From Banduia mediterranea (lineage in GTDB: Bacteria > Pseudomonadota > Gammaproteobacteria > Nevskiales > Nevskiaceae): a stretch of 64,000 nt of DNA. The notes below the pieces were generated by a model. The model ran no database searches. It was given only the letters and a program-made list of their open reading frames with translations, and had not been told where the DNA came from. The position numbers and the translations under genes were made by a program. Position 1 is the first letter of the stretch. Each line of letters opens with the position of its first letter. The stretch spans positions 1-64,000 of the forward strand of contig NZ_JAVRIC010000012.1 of NCBI RefSeq assembly GCF_031846245.1. The letters run 5' to 3'. Shown here one piece after another: positions 8,542 to 22,764 of this stretch.

Positions 8542-9579
8542 TTACCGTCGGCGATCGAATGCGGGAATCTGCATGGTCGTGCAATGCAGGCTGCCGTACT
8601 GGTGGATCAGCGCGCGGCAGTTCACGCCGACGATCGTCCGGTCCGGAAAGGCCTCGCGCAGATGGGCGATGGCGAGATCGTCCATCGGGTCATCGTAGGT
8701 CGGCACCAGCACACCGCCGTTGACGATCAGGAAGTTCGCATAACCGGCCGGCAGGCGGCGGCCGTCCGCATCCAGAATCGGAGCCGGCAGGGGCAATGGA
8801 ATCAGGCGGTAGGGCTGGCCGTCCGCACGCGACAGGCCGGCCAGTTCCTGGGCCATGCCGGTCAGCAGCGCGTAGTGCGGGTCGGAGGTGTCCTCGCAGG
8901 CCTGGTACGCGATCGTGTCCACGCTGCAGAACCGTGCCAGCGTGTCGATATGGCCGTCGGTATCGTCGCCAAGCAGGTCGCCGTGCTTGAGCCACAGCAC
9001 GCGATCCACGCCCAGCATCAGCTTGAGCCGCGATTCGATGCCAGATTTGTCGTAGTCCGGATTGCGCGTGGGCGTCAGCAGACAGCGTTCCGTGGTCAGC
9101 AGCGTGCCGATGCCGTCGGATTCGATGCCGCCACCCTCAAGCACGAAATCGACGGATTCCAGCGTATAGCCTTCGAACGCACCGGCCGCGTGCAGCTTCT
9201 TGCTGATGAGATTGTCACGGTCTGCAGAGAACTTGCCGCCCCAGCCATTGAAGCGGAAGTCCAGCATCACCGGTGTACCGTTTCGAAACACCGTGATCGG
9301 TCCATGATCGCGCGCCCAGACGTCATCGCTGGCGGCGGCGTAGATCCACAGGCGGTCCGGCGGTATGCCGGCTTCGATCAAGCGCTGTTGCAGGTCCACG
9401 GTCCCGGATTCGCGGCTGATGATCAGCGGCGCGAACCGGGCGATCGCGCAGGCCAGTTCCACGAAGTTGGTTTCCACCGCATCGAAGATGCCGGCGAAAT
9501 CGCCATCGGCGCGCGGCCAGGTCAGCATCACCGCGATTTGCGGATGCCACTCGGCGGGCAGGACGGTTGAGGTCGGCAT
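8542..9579 (-). CDS. aguA: Agmatine deiminase
   Basis: Converts agmatine to N-carbamoylputrescine and ammonia in the cytoplasm. The 345-residue protein is a guanidino-modifying enzyme of the PAD family, with WPRADGDF near the start, VWARDHGP (Asp91), NGWGGKF, the acidic cluster FVLEGGGIESDG (Glu149), DDTDGHIDT (His210) and the nucleophile Cys333 in LHCTTMQIP. ATG 9579 matches the usual family N-terminus; the frame remains open further upstream but the extra residues are low-complexity Pro. It forms a two-gene operon with aguB. Confidence 0.95.
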   Translation of the reverse strand: MPTSTVLPAEWHPQIAVMLTWPRADGDFAGIFDAVETNFVELACAIARFAPLIISRESGTVDLQQRLIEAGIPPDRLWIYAAASDDVWARDHGPITVFRNGTPVMLDFRFNGWGGKFSADRDNLISKKLHAAGAFEGYTLESVDFVLEGGGIESDGIGTLLTTERCLLTPTRNPDYDKSGIESRLKLMLGVDRVLWLKHGDLLGDDTDGHIDTLARFCSVDTIAYQACEDTSDPHYALLTGMAQELAGLSRADGQPYRLIPLPLPAPILDADGRRLPAGYANFLIVNGGVLVPTYDDPMDDLAIAHLREAFPDRTIVGVNCRALIHQYGSLHCTTMQIPAFDRRR

Positions 9580-9645
9580 GGGCGTTCCGGGCGGAGGTTG
9601 GGGAGGCAAAGTCGCCGAGGGTGGCCGCGCCTGCGGCACCTTGAA

Positions 9646-9674
9646 AAACGCCCCGGCCAAGGGCCGGGGCGCGC
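9646..9674 (-). terminator. Rho-independent terminator of the 9700-10020 gene
   Basis: On the minus strand GCCCCGGCC and GGCCGGGGC form a 9-bp stem around a short loop (CTT), followed by GTTTTTC. It lies about 25 bp downstream of the minus-strand gene ending at 9700 and upstream of aguA. Confidence 0.8.
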
Positions 9675-9699
9675 AGTTTAGCGGATTGGTGCGTCGAGT

Positions 9700-10020
9700 T
9701 TAGGGTACGAGCCGGTCGCGATGGGCCACGGGAGGGGGGGCTCCGGGCACGACGGCATCAATTACCCGATCTTTCTCGAAAAACACCGAAAAGCCATCGT
9801 AGTTCCAGCGGTTGATCAGTGGCTGCTTGGGCGCGGTGCCGCCTGCTGCGGAGCGGCTGGCCGGTTCGCCGTAGCGGCGCTGTACCTCGGCCATGCTGGT
9901 GCCGCGAGTCGGGAGCGTGAGCTTGGCTTGCGCGGCTCCAGTTTCGGGCGCGCTCAATACTTCGGCGGTCGCGCAAGCGGCCCAGGCCAGCATCAGTCCA
10001 GAAATCAGAAAACGCAGCAT
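9700..10020 (-). CDS. Small secreted conserved hypothetical protein
   Basis: A 106-residue protein with an N-terminal signal peptide (MLRFLISGLMLAWAACATA, probable cleavage after Ala19). The mature part has TLPTRGTSMAEVQRRYGEP, then NRWNYDGFSVFFEKDRVIDAVV. This layout (a short MxxVxxxxGxP helix, then a Tyr/Phe-rich strand pair) recalls the small BamE/SmpA-like fold, but I cannot assign it. It is probably periplasmic and monocistronic, with its own terminator downstream. Confidence 0.75.
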   Translation of the reverse strand: MLRFLISGLMLAWAACATAEVLSAPETGAAQAKLTLPTRGTSMAEVQRRYGEPASRSAAGGTAPKQPLINRWNYDGFSVFFEKDRVIDAVVPGAPPPVAHRDRLVP

Positions 10021-10088
10021 GTGTATGGCCTCCGGAGTTCGTTCGGACTATAGCATTGCCGCAAATCACCGCCCCAAAGTCGTGTGGT

Positions 10089-11237
10089 TCACGTCGCCTT
10101 CTGCAAGTCCTCGATCATCGCCGAAAGAAAGCGCGTGGCTTCGCCGCCGGTCACGCAGCGGTGGTCGAAGCTGACCGACAGCGGCAGGATCCTGGCGATG
10201 GTGATCTGACCATCGATCGGGACCACCGCATCGCGAGTCGAACCGGCGGCGACGATCGCGACGGTGGGCGGCACCACCACTGGCGTCGCGTACTTGCCGC
10301 CGAATCGGCCGAAGTTGGACAGGGTGATGGTGTAGCCGCGCAGTTCCTCGGGTGGCATCGTGCGGCTCTGGGCGGCCTCCTTCATTTTCACCAGGCCGGC
10401 GCGCAGCGAGGCTTCGTCGCGGTTGGCGACGTCCTGCAATACGGCGACGAACAGGCCCTCGTCGGTATCCACGGCCATGCCGACGTGAATCTTGCCGAGC
10501 ACGCGTCGGCCGATGTCGTGCTGGTCGTACCAGGCATTGAGCGAGGGTTCGCGTTTGCAAGCGGCCACCAGAGCGCGCAGCAGACGCATGGTCAGATCCT
10601 GCTTGCCTTGCCAGGCGTGAAGCACGGCGTCGTCGGTGACGGTCGCCGTGGCGATCTCGTCACGCGCCTGCGACATGGCGTTGGCCATGGCCTTGCGCGG
10701 TCCGCGCAGTTTTTCCAGTGGCCCGACCTCGCTCAGCACCTTGTGCACGCGTTGCACGTCGGCCGCGGTGATCATGCCTTCGGGCCCGGTGGCGGTGATG
10801 ATCGTCAGGTCCACATTGAGGCGGTGCGCCAGCGCTCGTACCGCGGGTGTCACCTTGAGTCCGCCCGCCGTCCCGACGCGCGTAGCCCTTTCGGCGACGA
10901 CCTCGTTGCCCTGCTTCATGGCGCCGACGACCACGCCGGTATCGCGGATCGCTTCGGATTCGGCTTCGGTGGTTGCCGGCGCAGGCGCTGCCTGCACGAC
11001 TTCATCGCCTTCGAACTCAACCAGGGGTTTGCCGACCTCGACGGTGTCGCCATCGGCCGCGCACAGCCTGGCGATGCGCCCGGTCACCGGACTCGGCACC
11101 TCGACCACGGCCTTGGCGGTTTCGACCGAAACCAGCGGCTGGTCGACCTTGACCTCGTCGCCGACCTTGACCAGCCATTCGCGGATATCGGCTTCCTGCA
11201 GGCCTTCGCCGAGATCCGGTAATTTGAAGATGCTCAT
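10089..11237 (-). CDS. Dihydrolipoamide acyltransferase (E2) of branched-chain 2-oxoacid dehydrogenase
   Basis: The E2 core transfers acyl groups from E1 to CoA. The 382-residue protein has one lipoyl domain (Lys42 in SVETAKAVVEVPSP), a hinge, a peripheral-subunit-binding domain (about 128-165, KVTPAVRALAHRLNVDL) and a C-terminal catalytic domain. The catalytic motif reads SFDHRCVTGGE (His359) rather than the textbook HRxxDG; such variants occur in this E2 branch. GGAG lies upstream of ATG 11237. The E1 genes lie upstream, separated by a toxin-antitoxin pair. No E3 gene is in the window. Branched-chain specificity is inferred from the two-gene E1 and the overall type. Confidence 0.9.
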   Translation of the reverse strand: MSIFKLPDLGEGLQEADIREWLVKVGDEVKVDQPLVSVETAKAVVEVPSPVTGRIARLCAADGDTVEVGKPLVEFEGDEVVQAAPAPATTEAESEAIRDTGVVVGAMKQGNEVVAERATRVGTAGGLKVTPAVRALAHRLNVDLTIITATGPEGMITAADVQRVHKVLSEVGPLEKLRGPRKAMANAMSQARDEIATATVTDDAVLHAWQGKQDLTMRLLRALVAACKREPSLNAWYDQHDIGRRVLGKIHVGMAVDTDEGLFVAVLQDVANRDEASLRAGLVKMKEAAQSRTMPPEELRGYTITLSNFGRFGGKYATPVVVPPTVAIVAAGSTRDAVVPIDGQITIARILPLSVSFDHRCVTGGEATRFLSAMIEDLQKAT

Positions 11238-11300
11238 GGGTTCTCCTTCTTGGGCGCAAGTCTTGTCGCTTGCCCGCCCATTGCTATTCCGTTCTCGAGT

Positions 11301-11522
11301 TCACGCTGAAAAATGTGCGTCGAGCTTGTCCAGCGCCTTCAAGCCGTCCTCGACCGAGCCATTGGCCGCGAGCGCACGAAATCGTGTCTCAGCGTCGAAC
11401 TCGGCAATGGCCTGCGTCGAAAATTCCTCGATGAGCTTGTTGATACTGATGTTCCGGCGCTTCGCGAGCGACTTCAGTCGCAGGTGTTTGTCGTCGGGTA
11501 AGCGAATGGTCAGTGTCGCCAT
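11301..11522 (-). CDS. Ribbon-helix-helix antitoxin
   Basis: A 73-residue protein starting MATLTIRLPDDKHLRLKSLA, a CopG/Arc ribbon-helix-helix DNA-binding fold, followed by a helix (NISINKLIEEFSTQAI) and an acidic C-terminus that would bind the toxin. It starts 4 bp after the stop of the PIN-domain gene, with a GAGG ribosome site inside the toxin's last codons. Known RHH/PIN pairs usually regulate their own promoter. Here the toxin is promoter-proximal, the less common order. Confidence 0.85.
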   Translation of the reverse strand: MATLTIRLPDDKHLRLKSLAKRRNISINKLIEEFSTQAIAEFDAETRFRALAANGSVEDGLKALDKLDAHFSA

Positions 11523-11526
11523 TGGG

Positions 11527-11949
11527 CTACCTCTTCAATAGAGCTTCGGGCGTGACTACATTGATGTCGGCGAATTTGAGCTCGCCGCGTGCCAGATTGC
11601 GAAGATTGTTCGTGATCAGCCATTGAGCCTGACCGGCGACGGCGAGCTCGATCAAATGGTTGTCGCCTTCGTCGCGCAGGTTGGGGCGCCACAAAAAGTA
11701 AATCGACACCCACTCGCTGGTTGAATACAAAGCGTTCAAAAGGCTCCGGATTTCAAGTGAGTCGAGCGGGCAGGATCTGCGGATATCCGGCCTGCTCGGC
11801 ACATCCTCATATTCACTGAACAGCGCGTTTCCGATCAGCAGCCGGTAGCGGCCAGTCAAGCACCCGCGCAGAATCTCGCGAGCGGGTCCCGTTCGGCCGA
11901 TCAGTGCCGCAATCAGCACGCTTGTATCGATGACGATCCGTTGCTGCAT
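11527..11949 (-). CDS. PIN-domain toxin (putative endoribonuclease)
   Basis: A 140-residue PIN-domain protein. Its acidic metal-site residues are Asp8 (RIVIDTSVLIAAL), Glu46 (LFSEYEDV) and Asp93/Asp96 (LRDEGDNHLIELA), with NN at 114-115 in place of the common terminal Asp position. The type is the COG1569 'putative toxin component, PIN family'. It precedes the RHH antitoxin with a 4-bp gap. No Shine-Dalgarno sequence is obvious before the ATG at 11949. The pair sits inside a metabolic operon. Confidence 0.85.
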   Translation of the reverse strand: MQQRIVIDTSVLIAALIGRTGPAREILRGCLTGRYRLLIGNALFSEYEDVPSRPDIRRSCPLDSLEIRSLLNALYSTSEWVSIYFLWRPNLRDEGDNHLIELAVAGQAQWLITNNLRNLARGELKFADINVVTPEALLKR

Positions 11950-11999
11950 TGATGCAATGGTTGCGCATATGCTGTCATCCGTAAAGCTGTACGCCGGGC

Positions 12000-13010
12000 T
12001 CAGCCCAGCGGCGCCACTTCGAAGACCTTGCGCACCTCGACGAGGATGCGCTGCATGTCCGGGATGTAGGCGCGCTCGCGCCGCGCCAGCGGCATGATCG
12101 TGTCGTAGCCGGAAACGCGCATCACCGGCGCGAACAGTGTCAGCAGGCCGTGCTCGGCGAGGTTGGCGGCAATCTCGGAGGCCCAGCCGCCGGCGCGCGG
12201 TGATTCCTGGATGATCACGCAGCGGCCGGTCTTGCTCACGGATTCGAGGATCGTGCCCATGTCCAGGGGCTTGAGTGTCGCTATGTCAACCACTTCGGCG
12301 GAGATGCCTTCCTCGGCCAGGGCGTCGGCCGCCAGCCGCGTCTCGTGCATCATCGCGCCCCAGGACACCAGGGTGATGTCGGTGCCGTCGCGTTCGATGA
12401 AGCATTCGTCCAGCGGCAGGGCTTCGCCGTTGTCCTCGATCGATTGCTTGAACAGCCGGTAGATGCGGGTCGGCTCCAGGAAGATCACCGGGTCCGGATC
12501 GCGCATTGCGGCCAGCAAAAGACCGTAGGCGCGGCTCGGCGAGGACGGACACACCACACGCAGTCCCGGCATGTGGGCGAAGGTGGTTTCCAGGGATTCG
12601 GAATGATGTTCCGGGGCGTGGATGCCGCCGCCATTCGGCGCGCGGATCACCATCGGGCAGGACAGACGCCCGCGCGTACGGTTGCGGTAGCGGCTGGCGT
12701 GGTTGACTACCTGATCGACGCAGGGATACATGAAGCCCGAAAACTGGATTTCGGCGACGGGTTTGAGGCCCTGCGTCGACAGGCCGATCGCCATCGCGGC
12801 GATCAGGGTTTCGGCCAGCGGTGTGTCGATCACGCGATCCGGGCCGAATTCGTCGAGCAGGCCGACGGTGGCGCGGAACACGCCGCCGTTGCGGCCGATG
12901 TCCTCGCCGAGCATGACCACATCCGGATCGCGCCGCATCTCCGAGCGCAGCGCCAGATTGATCGCCTCGATCAGGGCCAGGTTGGCGACTTCGGTCTTGG
13001 TGCCGTCCAT
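12000..13010 (-). CDS. 2-oxoacid dehydrogenase E1 component, beta subunit
   Basis: The 336-residue beta subunit of a thiamine-diphosphate-dependent E1 (transketolase-like central and C-terminal domains). Typical segments are NLALIEAINLALRSEM, VVMLGEDIGRNGGVFRAT, PLAETLIAAMAIGLSTQG and EIQFSGFMYPCVDQVVNHAS. With the alpha subunit it decarboxylates branched-chain 2-oxoacids and acylates the E2 lipoyl group. Its start overlaps the alpha-subunit stop (ATGA at 13010), so the two are translated together, as suits a 1:1 heterotetramer. Confidence 0.93.
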   Translation of the reverse strand: MDGTKTEVANLALIEAINLALRSEMRRDPDVVMLGEDIGRNGGVFRATVGLLDEFGPDRVIDTPLAETLIAAMAIGLSTQGLKPVAEIQFSGFMYPCVDQVVNHASRYRNRTRGRLSCPMVIRAPNGGGIHAPEHHSESLETTFAHMPGLRVVCPSSPSRAYGLLLAAMRDPDPVIFLEPTRIYRLFKQSIEDNGEALPLDECFIERDGTDITLVSWGAMMHETRLAADALAEEGISAEVVDIATLKPLDMGTILESVSKTGRCVIIQESPRAGGWASEIAANLAEHGLLTLFAPVMRVSGYDTIMPLARRERAYIPDMQRILVEVRKVFEVAPLG

Positions 13011-14119
13011 CAGTGCGCCCCCTCGACCGGTCCGCGTGCCGCCACTTCCTCGCGCTGCCAGTGCATCGAGGTCGGCAGTTCGGCATAGAGATGATCGAAG
13101 ATCGTTTCCGGCGGTTCGGCCTCCATGGCGGTGAAGGCTTGAGCTGCGGATTCCGCTGCCGCCACTGCTTCGCTCTGTAGCGACTCCTCGTCTGCGCTGC
13201 TCCAGGCGTTCTGCGATTCGAGATAGGCGCGCAGCCGTTTGATCGGACAGCGCGCCCAGGCGGCCTTGACCTCGTCCTCGCTGCGGTAGCGGCGCGCATC
13301 GTCGGCGGTGGTGTGGTCGTGCAGGCGGTAGGTGATGGCCTCCACCAGTTGCGGCCCTTCGCCGGCTCGTGCCGCCGCGATCGCCTGGTTCAGGATTTCA
13401 TAGGTGGCGATAGCGTCGTTGCCGTCGACCTGCTGGCCGATGATGCCGCCGGCGATGCCCTTCTGCGCCAGGGTCTGCGCGCCGGTCTGTTTGTCGCGCG
13501 GCAGCGAGATCGCCCACTGGTTGTTGGTCACCAGAAACACGATCGGCAGGTTCCAGACCTTGGCCGAGCTGACGGCCTCGTAGAAATCGCCCTTGCTGGT
13601 GGCGCCGTCACCGCAGGACGCCAGTACCACGCGGTCCTGCTTGCGCAGCCGGAACGCGTAGGCGACGCCGATGGCGTGCGGCACGTGTGTGGCGATCGGT
13701 ACCGAAAGCGGATAGTCCTGGCGCGCCGAGTCGGCGGCGTAGTCCATGCCGCGCTCGTCGCCTCCCCAATAGAGCAGGATCTCGGTCATGCTCACGCCGC
13801 GCAGGAACTGCGCCGCGTATTCGCGATAGGCGGGGATGTAGACATCGTCGGCGCGCAGCGCCATGCCGACGGCAGTGCCCACGGCTTCCTGACCGAGGCA
13901 GGCGGCGTAGGTGCCGAGCTGCCCGGTTCTCTGCAGGGCCACGGCTTTCTTGTCGAAGGCGCGGGTGCGCACCATGCTGCGGTACATGCTCCTGACGCGA
14001 TCCGGGTCCGCTGCCCCGTCCGGCAGGGCCGCCAGGGGGCGGCCCTCGGTATCCAGATACCGTGTCAGGATGATTTCAAAGCTCGCGACACGCTTGATCG
14101 CGTCTTTCGGTTCGTTCAC
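13010..14119 (-). CDS. 2-oxoacid dehydrogenase E1 component, alpha subunit
   Basis: The 369-residue E1 alpha subunit. It has the thiamine-diphosphate motif GDGATSKGDFYEAVSSAKVW followed by LPIVFLVTNNQWAIS, and the phosphorylation-loop region YRLHDHTTADDARRYR typical of the branched-chain enzyme. The frame opens at a GTG at 14134. A second GTG at 14119 has a better-spaced GAGGT ribosome site, so I use it. It is the first gene of the operon; the branched-chain assignment is by motif pattern and E1 organisation. Confidence 0.92.
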   Translation of the reverse strand: MNEPKDAIKRVASFEIILTRYLDTEGRPLAALPDGAADPDRVRSMYRSMVRTRAFDKKAVALQRTGQLGTYAACLGQEAVGTAVGMALRADDVYIPAYREYAAQFLRGVSMTEILLYWGGDERGMDYAADSARQDYPLSVPIATHVPHAIGVAYAFRLRKQDRVVLASCGDGATSKGDFYEAVSSAKVWNLPIVFLVTNNQWAISLPRDKQTGAQTLAQKGIAGGIIGQQVDGNDAIATYEILNQAIAAARAGEGPQLVEAITYRLHDHTTADDARRYRSEDEVKAAWARCPIKRLRAYLESQNAWSSADEESLQSEAVAAAESAAQAFTAMEAEPPETIFDHLYAELPTSMHWQREEVAARGPVEGAH

Positions 14120-20981: not shown

Positions 20982-21929
20982 ATGAACGTGTCCGGAGCCG
21001 TCTCAGGAAGCAGTACCGATGCCGCACAGCGTGCCGCTGCAATGGCGGCGCTGGACGGGGCCGACCGCCAGTGGCCCGATCCGCGAGCTGCCACGGGCTT
21101 GATGCCGGCCAGCAACGAAGCCTATTTCCACCCGCAGTACGCTACGCTGATGCGCGAGCAATTCGGCATCGGCCCGGGCGTGTCGATGGTGAGCTTCTCG
21201 GAGAGCGTCGCCGGCACTGCGCGACAGCCGATCGATCTGGAACTGGCGCAGCTCGCGCAGGATGTCTACGACGTCAACGGCCAGGGCATCGACGGCTGGA
21301 GCCGGCTCGACGGTGACGCCCTGCGCGCCGCCGGTATCGACCCCGGCACGCTCGAAGACAGCGACAGCGGACTGCGCGCCGCGATCTACCAGAACGACGA
21401 AGGGGAGACCGTTCTCGCGTTCGCGGGCTCCAATGACGGACCGGACTGGCTCAACAATCTGCAACAGGGCATCGGCATGGACGCCGAGCAATACGATCAG
21501 GCCACGGCGCTGGCGCGCCGCGCCGCCGTGGCCTTCGGTGATGAGCTGGTGATCGTCGGGCACTCGCTGGGCGGCGGTCTCGCCTCCGCTGCCTCGCTGG
21601 CCACCGGCAACAGCGCCGTGACCTTCAATGCGGCGGGGCTTTCGGACAACACCATCGAAGACCTCGGCCTGGTGCCGGATGCGGCGCGCGAGACTGCCGA
21701 AGCCGGCCAGATTCGTCGCTACAACATCGAAGGCGAAATCCTCACCTGGGAACAGGAAGATGCCTACGGCGATTCCTGGATCCTGCCGGATGCCCTGGGC
21801 CATGAGGTCGAAATGGCTGATCCCGACCCGCTGGGCGGCCTTTCCAGCTTGTGGCCGCCAAACGTGATCGGGCACCGGATCGAGCTGCACGGCATGGGCT
21901 CGGTGCTGGATGCGATGCGCGCCGGTTGA
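20982..21929 (+). CDS. Lipase-like alpha/beta hydrolase (class 3/DUF2974-like)
   Basis: A 315-residue predicted lipase. The nucleophile elbow is VIVGHSLGGGLASAA with Ser195. The preceding block (AIYQNDEGETVLAFAGSNDG, then DWLNNLQQGIG) is typical of class 3/Mbeg1-like lipases. Likely acid and base are in the segments AYGDSWI or MADPDPLGG (about 262-284) and NVIGHRIELHG (His298). There is no signal peptide or membrane helix, so export would need a dedicated secretion system. It is followed by an ankyrin-repeat lipoprotein 97 bp downstream. The N-terminal 80 residues are unassigned. Substrate and cellular role are not known. Confidence 0.82.
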   Translation: MNVSGAVSGSSTDAAQRAAAMAALDGADRQWPDPRAATGLMPASNEAYFHPQYATLMREQFGIGPGVSMVSFSESVAGTARQPIDLELAQLAQDVYDVNGQGIDGWSRLDGDALRAAGIDPGTLEDSDSGLRAAIYQNDEGETVLAFAGSNDGPDWLNNLQQGIGMDAEQYDQATALARRAAVAFGDELVIVGHSLGGGLASAASLATGNSAVTFNAAGLSDNTIEDLGLVPDAARETAEAGQIRRYNIEGEILTWEQEDAYGDSWILPDALGHEVEMADPDPLGGLSSLWPPNVIGHRIELHGMGSVLDAMRAG

Positions 21930-22026
21930 TCGCACACATTGACAAGGTCTGCTCCGGACCGCGAGGATCAAGGCAGATGGAGCTGCACGGGCGCCGCTGT
22001 CGGCCGTCCGTCACCTTGAGAGACCG

Positions 22027-22764
22027 ATGCTGCGACTGATCGCGAACCTGGGCGTGCTGGCCGCGCTCATCGTTCTGTCGGTGGGCTGTGGCGATGCGGC
22101 GACACCCGGGAAAGCCATGCCGTCCGGATTTACCGAGCCCAGGAATATCGTGCTGGCCGAGGCAGTGGCGGCCAATGACGTGGAGGGCGTGCAGGCTGCG
22201 ATCCGGGCGGGCGGCGACGTGAATGCACGGGGGGAAGAAGGCGTGGGCCTGCTGCATTGGGCGATTCTCAATCGCGCACCCGATGCGCTCGGAGCCCTGC
22301 TCGATGCCGGTGCCGACCCCCTGGTCACCACCGAGGCCGGACGCGCCGCCATGCACTATGCCGCCGTGGCGGATGATCCCGCGTATCTGAAAGTGCTGCT
22401 GTCGCGCGGCGCATCCACCGAGGTCCGCAACAGCCGCAACGGCCACACGCCGATTTTCGACGCCGTGGGGGGGCGCGGCGCCGAATCGCTGAGCCTGCTG
22501 ATCGAAGCCGGAGCGGACGTCAATGCCGCTGCGCCGATGGGCGATACGCCGCTGCATGAGGCCGCTTCGGTCGGTGATTTCGATGGTGTGAAGCGCCTGC
22601 TCGAAGCGGGTGCCGATCCGTGGGCACGCAACGCGCAGAAGGCTACGTTCCAGGCCTATCTCAGGGTCGGGCCCGCCGAATCCGCTTATACCGAGAAGGC
22701 GCAGCGCCAGCGCGAGGCCATCCGCAACTGGCTGCGTGCGCAGCGCATCGAAGTCGACTTCTGA
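22027..22764 (+). CDS. Ankyrin-repeat lipoprotein
   Basis: A 245-residue predicted lipoprotein. The signal segment (LIANLGVLAALIVLSVGC) ends in a lipobox with Cys21, so it should be anchored facing the periplasm. About five ankyrin repeats follow (residues 40-220), with hallmark AIRAGGDVNAR, LLDAGADPLVT, LIEAGADVNAAAPMGDTPLHEAA and LLEAGADPWAR. Ankyrin proteins act in protein binding. Its position directly after a lipase lacking a signal peptide suggests it may bind or neutralise that enzyme, which is my inference. GAGAG precedes the ATG. Confidence 0.88.
   Translation: MLRLIANLGVLAALIVLSVGCGDAATPGKAMPSGFTEPRNIVLAEAVAANDVEGVQAAIRAGGDVNARGEEGVGLLHWAILNRAPDALGALLDAGADPLVTTEAGRAAMHYAAVADDPAYLKVLLSRGASTEVRNSRNGHTPIFDAVGGRGAESLSLLIEAGADVNAAAPMGDTPLHEAASVGDFDGVKRLLEAGADPWARNAQKATFQAYLRVGPAESAYTEKAQRQREAIRNWLRAQRIEVDF

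What the first reader, a model, noticed from the sequence alone, without database searches (positions are those of the whole stretch)
20982..22764. Signal-less lipase followed by an ankyrin lipoprotein: candidate antibacterial effector/immunity pair
The lipase has a clear GHSLGG nucleophile but no export signal, which fits injection by a type VI or type IV secretion machine. The next gene encodes a periplasm-facing lipoprotein made of ankyrin repeats, a binding fold. Lipase effectors of T6SS/Xanthomonas T4SS are often paired with periplasmic lipoprotein immunity proteins. The pair sits alone between comEC and hisI with no other partner to explain it. No VgrG, PAAR or XVIPCD domain is seen, so the route is unknown.
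Basis: partly seen in the sequence, partly recalled or inferred. Interest (0 to 1): 0.62.

Follow-up and report, generated by a model that had tools for sequence, protein, structure and literature searches.

The report
Antibacterial lipase and ankyrin immunity pair
These two genes are relatives of a known weapon-and-antidote pair (a fat-cutting enzyme that bacteria inject into rivals, and the ankyrin protein that blocks it), but here they sit in a genus in which none of the injection machines known to deliver such enzymes could be found.

Summary
A 315-aa lipase without an export signal (20982-21929) is followed by a 245-aa ankyrin lipoprotein (22027-22764), between comEC and hisI. The two match, by sequence, the two chains of one crystal complex: the Enterobacter cloacae T6SS lipase Tle and its ankyrin immunity protein Tli (7ubz, 'Tle6'); the predicted lipase fold also finds this complex (9cys) first. 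The Ser195-Glu252-His303 triad is kept. An ankyrin gene lies beside the lipase in 77 of 89 loci, and the two proteins co-diverge (Mantel r 0.75). Effector and immunity is therefore the right reading of ancestry. Three things differ from the textbook case. (1) The genome lacks TssC, TssM, VgrG and P/X-type VirB4; the only T4SS found is an F-type conjugation system, so the delivery route is unexplained. (2) The lipase has no lysine and ends before the Lys461 position, so the Arg180-Lys461 glycation crosslink that activates E. cloacae Tle cannot form. (3) Like most of its family, the ankyrin gene carries a Met just after the signal peptide, family-wide backed by a ribosome-binding site (weak in the window itself). 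Both genes are under purifying selection. Verdict: new variant of a known kind.

The parts
20982..21929 (+). Tle6-like phospholipase, 315 aa, no signal peptide, no Lys and no Cys
   Evidence: ORF; 7ubz_B E = 3e-23; AlphaFold model mean pLDDT 84.4, best PDB match 9cys E = 9e-15; composition
21564..21566 (+). catalytic nucleophile Ser195 (GHSLGGG), equivalent to Ser341 of E. cloacae Tle
   Evidence: invariant in the family alignments; aligned
21735..21737 (+). catalytic acid Glu252, equivalent to Glu393 of Tle (Glu or Asp in homologues)
21888..21890 (+). catalytic His303, equivalent to His448 of Tle; the protein ends 12 residues later, before the Lys461 position (His+13)
21120..21161 (+). N-terminal AYFHPQYATLMREQ segment (residues 47-60), shared with module-free Luteimonas/Lysobacter lipases (YHPQ motif)
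22027..22764 (+). Tli6-like ankyrin-repeat lipoprotein, 245 aa, candidate immunity protein
   Evidence: 7ubz_A E = 2e-18; 39% over the whole length with the Xanthomonas sacchari partner
22027..22089 (+). lipoprotein signal peptide ending in lipobox LSVG-C21 (+2 residue is Gly, not Asp)
   Evidence: read from the sequence
22117..22119 (+). Met31 codon just after the signal peptide: candidate internal start for a cytosolic isoform; only a weak GGGA upstream
   Evidence: position conserved in 33 of 38 non-redundant partners
22153..22632 (+). ankyrin repeats (about residues 43-202)
   Evidence: Pfam Ank/Ank_2

Best explanation
The two genes are a Tle6/Tli6-type toxin-immunity pair. The lipase is a phospholipase meant to act on membrane phospholipids in the periplasm of another cell (or of a sibling). 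The ankyrin lipoprotein, anchored in the periplasm, cups the lipase, displaces its lid helix and blocks it. A shorter form of the ankyrin protein, made from an internal start after the signal peptide, probably binds newly made lipase in the cytosol and helps it fold. Unlike E. cloacae Tle, this lipase cannot be activated by an Arg-Lys glycation crosslink. Shown by computation: homology of both chains to one solved complex, an intact triad, conserved pairing, co-divergence, purifying selection, absence of the crosslink lysine, and absence of core T6SS and P/X-type T4SS genes. Inferred: enzyme activity, inhibition, cytosolic isoform, and delivery. The route is unknown in this genus; either an unrecognised route exists or the pair outlived its delivery machine.
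For: PDB sequence search: lipase to 7ubz_B E = 3e-23, ankyrin to 7ubz_A E = 2e-18, the two chains of one effector/immunity complex. Foldseek: 9cys (same complex) E = 9e-15, next match 1.5e-5. Triad Ser195/Glu252/His303 conserved. Ankyrin ORF beside the lipase in 77 of 89 loci and fused to it in 2 more. Lipase and ankyrin similarities co-vary (r = 0.75, 0 of 2000 permutations, 49 non-redundant pairs). Delivery modules on homologues: XVIPCD in 22 of 77, plus VgrG, PAAR, Hcp, Rhs, WXG100. Purifying selection on both genes between two species (lipase P = 7e-4, ankyrin P = 2e-7). Internal Met after the signal in 33 of 38 partners against 10.8 expected; Shine-Dalgarno upstream of 19 of 40 such Mets against 10 of 130 control Mets, P = 9e-8. 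Published biology of Tle/Tli: PMC11470151, PMC10294624.
Against: No TssC, TssM or VgrG and no P/X-type VirB4 in the genome. No delivery module on the protein. The lipase evolves faster (dN/dS 0.28) than its partner (0.05), as expected if only immunity were strongly kept. The Shine-Dalgarno in front of Met31 of the window itself is weak. No activity or binding data.
Confidence: 0.78

Rival explanations
1. Orphan immunity: the ancestor lost its T6SS or X-T4SS, and the lineage keeps the ankyrin lipoprotein as protection against Tle6-type lipases of neighbours; the lipase is retained only in passing. (This is a special case of the best explanation in which delivery has ceased.)
For: Core T6SS genes absent in both species of the genus; ankyrin dN/dS 0.05 against 0.28 for the lipase; 8 genomes of the same family and 3 more of the order do have TssC, so loss is plausible.
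Against: The lipase is intact in both species, its triad is kept and it is under significant purifying selection (P = 7e-4). Two genomes only; when a machine would have been lost is unknown.
Confidence: 0.35
2. The lipase is exported by a route not recognised here: the F-type conjugation T4SS, outer-membrane vesicles, lysis, or an unknown machine.
For: F-type T4SS genes (TraC, TraB, TraK, TraE) in the genome. Purifying selection on the lipase without T6SS/X-T4SS. Seven of 50 homologue-bearing genomes also lack both TssC and P-type VirB4.
Against: I know of no F-type system that delivers antibacterial lipases; no signal or module is recognisable. Three of the seven exceptions are Gram-positive and one is a Bacteroidota member, where other known machines apply.
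Confidence: 0.25
3. A cell-internal lipid-remodelling enzyme with an ankyrin regulator, not a weapon.
For: Conserved at the same locus in both species of the genus, no delivery module, purifying selection.
Against: The ankyrin partner carries a lipoprotein signal and so faces the periplasm while the lipase is cytosolic; all modular homologues are secretion-linked; found in only 3 of 85 genomes of the order, unlike a housekeeping gene.
Confidence: 0.1
4. Chance adjacency of an unrelated lipase and an ankyrin protein.
For: Ankyrin proteins are common.
Against: Both chains hit the same solved complex; 77 of 89 loci paired; co-divergence.
Confidence: 0.01

Closest known systems
Tle/Tli of Enterobacter cloacae ('Tle6', PDB 7ubz, 9cys; PMC11470151)
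   Same: Lipase domain fold, Ser-Glu-His triad, ankyrin-repeat lipoprotein as partner, Met after the signal peptide of the partner that could start a cytosolic form
   Different: No lysine in the window lipase and no residue at the Lys461 position, so no Arg-Lys glycation crosslink; shorter and different N-terminal part; no T6SS found in the genome
Serratia-type stand-alone lipases (PMC11470151 names Serratia marcescens Slp as a Tle homologue; close Serratia loci here L049, L051, L052)
   Same: About 315-320 aa, no delivery module, ankyrin gene directly downstream
   Different: Serratia forms keep Lys at His+13; that Slp is a lipase effector is from the literature, and no T6SS was found in the window genome
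Module-free lipases of Luteimonas/Lysobacter (L014, L023, L026, L034, L039)
   Same: Closest in sequence (L014 51%), shared YHPQ segment, downstream ankyrin lipoprotein
   Different: In those loci the short lipase stands in tandem with longer lipase/ankyrin pairs, and in the four genomes tested by their own locus (L014, L023, L026, L034) a TssC or a P/X-type VirB4 is present
X-T4SS lipase effectors with XVIPCD (e.g. Xanthomonas sacchari L004)
   Same: Same lipase domain (43%) and same ankyrin partner (39%)
   Different: They carry a C-terminal XVIPCD and have the ankyrin gene upstream; the window lipase ends after the lipase domain

Membership tests
Tle6/Tli6 (E. cloacae Tle/Tli type) | Lipase domain homologous to E. 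cloacae Tle | tested here: met
   7ubz_B E = 3e-23; 9cys E = 9e-15 by fold
Tle6/Tli6 (E. cloacae Tle/Tli type) | Ser-Glu-His triad | tested here: met
   Ser195, Glu252, His303
Tle6/Tli6 (E. cloacae Tle/Tli type) | Encoded next to an ankyrin-repeat immunity lipoprotein of the Tli type | tested here: met
   7ubz_A E = 2e-18; lipobox and repeats
Tle6/Tli6 (E. cloacae Tle/Tli type) | T6SS in the producing cell | tested here: not met
   No TssC, VgrG or TssM; genome 99.66% complete
Tle6/Tli6 (E. cloacae Tle/Tli type) | Arg180-Lys461 glycation crosslink (shown for E. cloacae Tle, suggested for all Tle6) | tested here: not met
   No Lys in the protein, which ends at His+12; Lys at His+13 in only 24 of 101 family members
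Tle6/Tli6 (E. cloacae Tle/Tli type) | Cytosolic Tli isoform from an internal start | tested here: inconclusive
   Met31 is present at the conserved place, but its Shine-Dalgarno is weak in the window
Tle6/Tli6 (E. cloacae Tle/Tli type) | Phospholipase A1 activity and neutralisation by Tli | not testable with these tools
   needs biochemistry
X-T4SS effectors (X-Tfe) | C-terminal XVIPCD | tested here: not met
   No PF20410 match in the window lipase, while 22 of the 77 scanned lipases, L004 among them, match
X-T4SS effectors (X-Tfe) | X-type T4SS (VirB4) in the genome | tested here: not met
   No PF03135 match; only F-type TraC found

The most novel reading that the evidence does not exclude
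A Tle6-type phospholipase and its ankyrin partner remain active and selected in a genus without T6SS or X-T4SS, so they either leave the cell by an unrecognised route or have been turned to another use, and they are stabilised without the glycation crosslink proposed for the family.
Probability: 0.3. Interest if true: 0.65.

Novelty: new variant of a known kind. Interest (0 to 1): 0.42.

Why it matters
It gives a natural test of two open points about this toxin family. First, the proposal that all Tle6 lipases depend on an Arg-Lys glycation crosslink: this protein has no lysine and most homologues lack a Lys at the crosslink position, so a different way of stabilising the fold should exist in much of the family. 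Second, whether the dual (periplasmic and cytosolic) immunity protein is general: a Met with a ribosome-binding site just after the signal peptide is common across T6SS- and T4SS-type members. It also flags a genus in which the pair is under selection although the usual injection machines were not found.

Tried and rejected
Calling the genome free of T4SS: rejected. PF03135 found nothing, but a TrbI search led to an F-type conjugation system with TraC_F, which PF03135 had missed; the VirB4 tally over the 50 homologue genomes therefore also does not cover F-type systems. A T4SS coupling-protein hit on contig C39 proved to be a fragment in a mobilisable element with a relaxase, IS66 and an ABC-3C cargo. 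Claiming that the crosslink lysine is confined to a handful of homologues: withdrawn after counting; the Glu+10/Lys+13 pattern is in 5 of 101, but Lys+13 alone is in 24 of 101. The Arg180 column could not be aligned because matches to 7ubz do not reach that far. Phage records: no homologue. PADLOC matches of the ankyrin protein look like general ankyrin-repeat matches and were not followed. NCBIfam SA1320 and Dot/Icm Ank matches lie far below their cut-offs. Promoter and terminator scan: nothing. Prediction of the complex was not available.

Full report
Observation. The lipase ORF (20982-21929, 315 aa) and the ankyrin ORF (22027-22764, 245 aa) are as described. The lipase starts at 20982: an in-frame TAG lies just upstream with no other start codon between, and the N-terminus has no hydrophobic segment. 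The ankyrin protein starts with a signal peptide ending in LSVG-C21 and holds Pfam ankyrin repeats. Upstream of comEC lie what read as lolC/E and lolD genes (named by inspection). A second species of the genus has the same two genes at the same place.

Identity. A sequence search of the PDB gives one hit for the lipase, 7ubz_B 'T6SS lipase effector' (E = 3e-23, residues 80-312). The ankyrin protein, among many general ankyrin matches that score higher, hits 7ubz_A, the other chain of the same complex (E = 2e-18). This is Tle/Tli of Enterobacter cloacae, for which the name Tle6 was proposed (PMC11470151). An AlphaFold model (mean pLDDT 84.4; above 90 through most of residues 71-315, lower around 151-170, probably the lid) has 9cys, the same complex, as best PDB match (E = 9e-15). 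Ser195, Glu252 and His303 match Ser341, Glu393 and His448 of Tle (numbering from the paper, offset worked out on the alignment). The partner is not a generic ankyrin match: it aligns over its whole length, C-terminal tail included, with the partner of a Xanthomonas sacchari XVIPCD lipase (39%, E = 2e-33).

Family context. An alignment-based scan gave 80 loci in named genomes. With nine others, 77 of 89 have an ankyrin ORF within 400 bases of the lipase; in two Providencia loci ankyrins are fused to the lipase. The exceptions are eight Xenorhabdus, one Nocardia and one Terracoccus. Across 49 non-redundant pairs the lipase and ankyrin similarities co-vary (Mantel r = 0.75, 0 of 2000 permutations). 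Of 77 full-length lipases, 22 carry XVIPCD, and others carry PAAR, VgrG, Hcp, Rhs or WXG100 modules. The domain is thus a polymorphic-toxin cargo used by several machines. The window lipase belongs to the module-free kind, nearest to Luteimonas and Lysobacter proteins (L014, L026, L023), with which it shares a YHPQ segment.

Delivery. The genome (99.66% complete) has no TssC, no VgrG-type hub, no TssM and no P/X-type VirB4. The sister species also lacks TssC and TssM; VgrG and VirB4 were not searched there. A TrbI search gave a hit in both species; in the window's own genome it lies in an F-type conjugation system (TraC_F, TraB, TraK, TraE). Among 50 genomes with a homologue, 26 have TssC, 28 have P-type VirB4 and 7 have neither (overlap tallied by hand). 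The window's genus is thus an exception. The lipase is rare in its order: 3 of 85 genomes, one of them a distant form.

Selection. Between the two species the lipase has 14 nonsynonymous and 16 synonymous differences (dN/dS 0.28, P = 7e-4 against neutrality) and the ankyrin gene 2 and 15 (0.05, P = 2e-7). For comparison part of comEC has 0.16 and part of hisI 0.04. Both genes are constrained, the immunity-like gene more.

Crosslink. In E. cloacae, methylglyoxal joins Arg180 and Lys461 and this is required for activity; the authors raise the possibility that all Tle6 lipases are so treated (PMC11470151). The window lipase has no Lys and no Cys and ends 12 residues after the catalytic His, one short of the Lys461 position. 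Among 101 family members with an aligned His, Lys stands at His+13 in 24, the Glu+10/Lys+13 pattern in 5, and 8 (window included) have no Lys in the lipase core. The sister protein has two Lys, neither at the C-terminus. The crosslink as described is unlikely to be universal.

Dual start. E. cloacae makes a cytosolic Tli from start codons after the signal peptide, which is needed to activate Tle (PMC10294624, PMC11470151). After removing partners over 70% identical, 33 of 38 signal-bearing partners have a Met within 22 residues after the hydrophobic stretch (10.8 expected from their Met content). Of these Mets, 19 of 40 have a Shine-Dalgarno of at least 4 bases at a suitable distance, against 10 of 130 other internal Mets (odds ratio 10.9, P = 9e-8). 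This includes Xanthomonas-type partners of XVIPCD lipases. The window has the Met (Met31) but only a weak GGGA. The relatedness of the sequences is only partly corrected by the 70% filter.

Conclusion. The pair works like, and shares descent with, Tle6/Tli6 effector-immunity pairs. Two features tied to that family, a T6SS and the glycation crosslink, were tested and not met, so it is filed as a variant, not as a proven T6SS effector. Whether it is still delivered to other cells, by what route, or survives as orphan immunity cannot be settled by sequence.

Noticed in passing
G000 contig C23, locus L096 5628-17221, cargo at 9524-13433: F-type conjugation T4SS (TraC, TraB, TraK, TraE) interrupted by a cargo that reads as a CBASS-like defence set: SMODS nucleotidyltransferase, AAA ATPase and Cap17-like nucleosidase.
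   Followed up: partly
G000 contig C39, locus L012: Mobilisable element: relaxase, partial T4SS coupling protein, ABC-three-component (CTD7, DUF3732) genes and an IS66 transposase.
   Followed up: partly
L083 and L088 (Providencia rettgeri, P. rustigianii): The lipase is fused to C-terminal ankyrin repeats in one 482-484 aa protein, as if effector and immunity-like domain were one polypeptide.
   Followed up: no
L014, L023, L026, L034, L039, L064, L068, L069, L073: Luteimonas/Lysobacter lipases of about 490-590 aa carry a repetitive, Asp/Gly-rich C-terminal tail of 150-290 residues; the two scanned one by one (L014, L023) have no Pfam match there. They often stand in tandem with a short lipase like that of the window; a possible undescribed delivery or assembly module.
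   Followed up: no
L054, L055, L059, L060, L061, L067, L075, L081 (Xenorhabdus): Homologous lipases with no ankyrin ORF detected nearby; they may use another immunity protein.
   Followed up: no
L063 (Terracoccus): The lipase domain is fused to an N-terminal WXG100 domain, suggesting type VII secretion in a Gram-positive, without an ankyrin neighbour.
   Followed up: no
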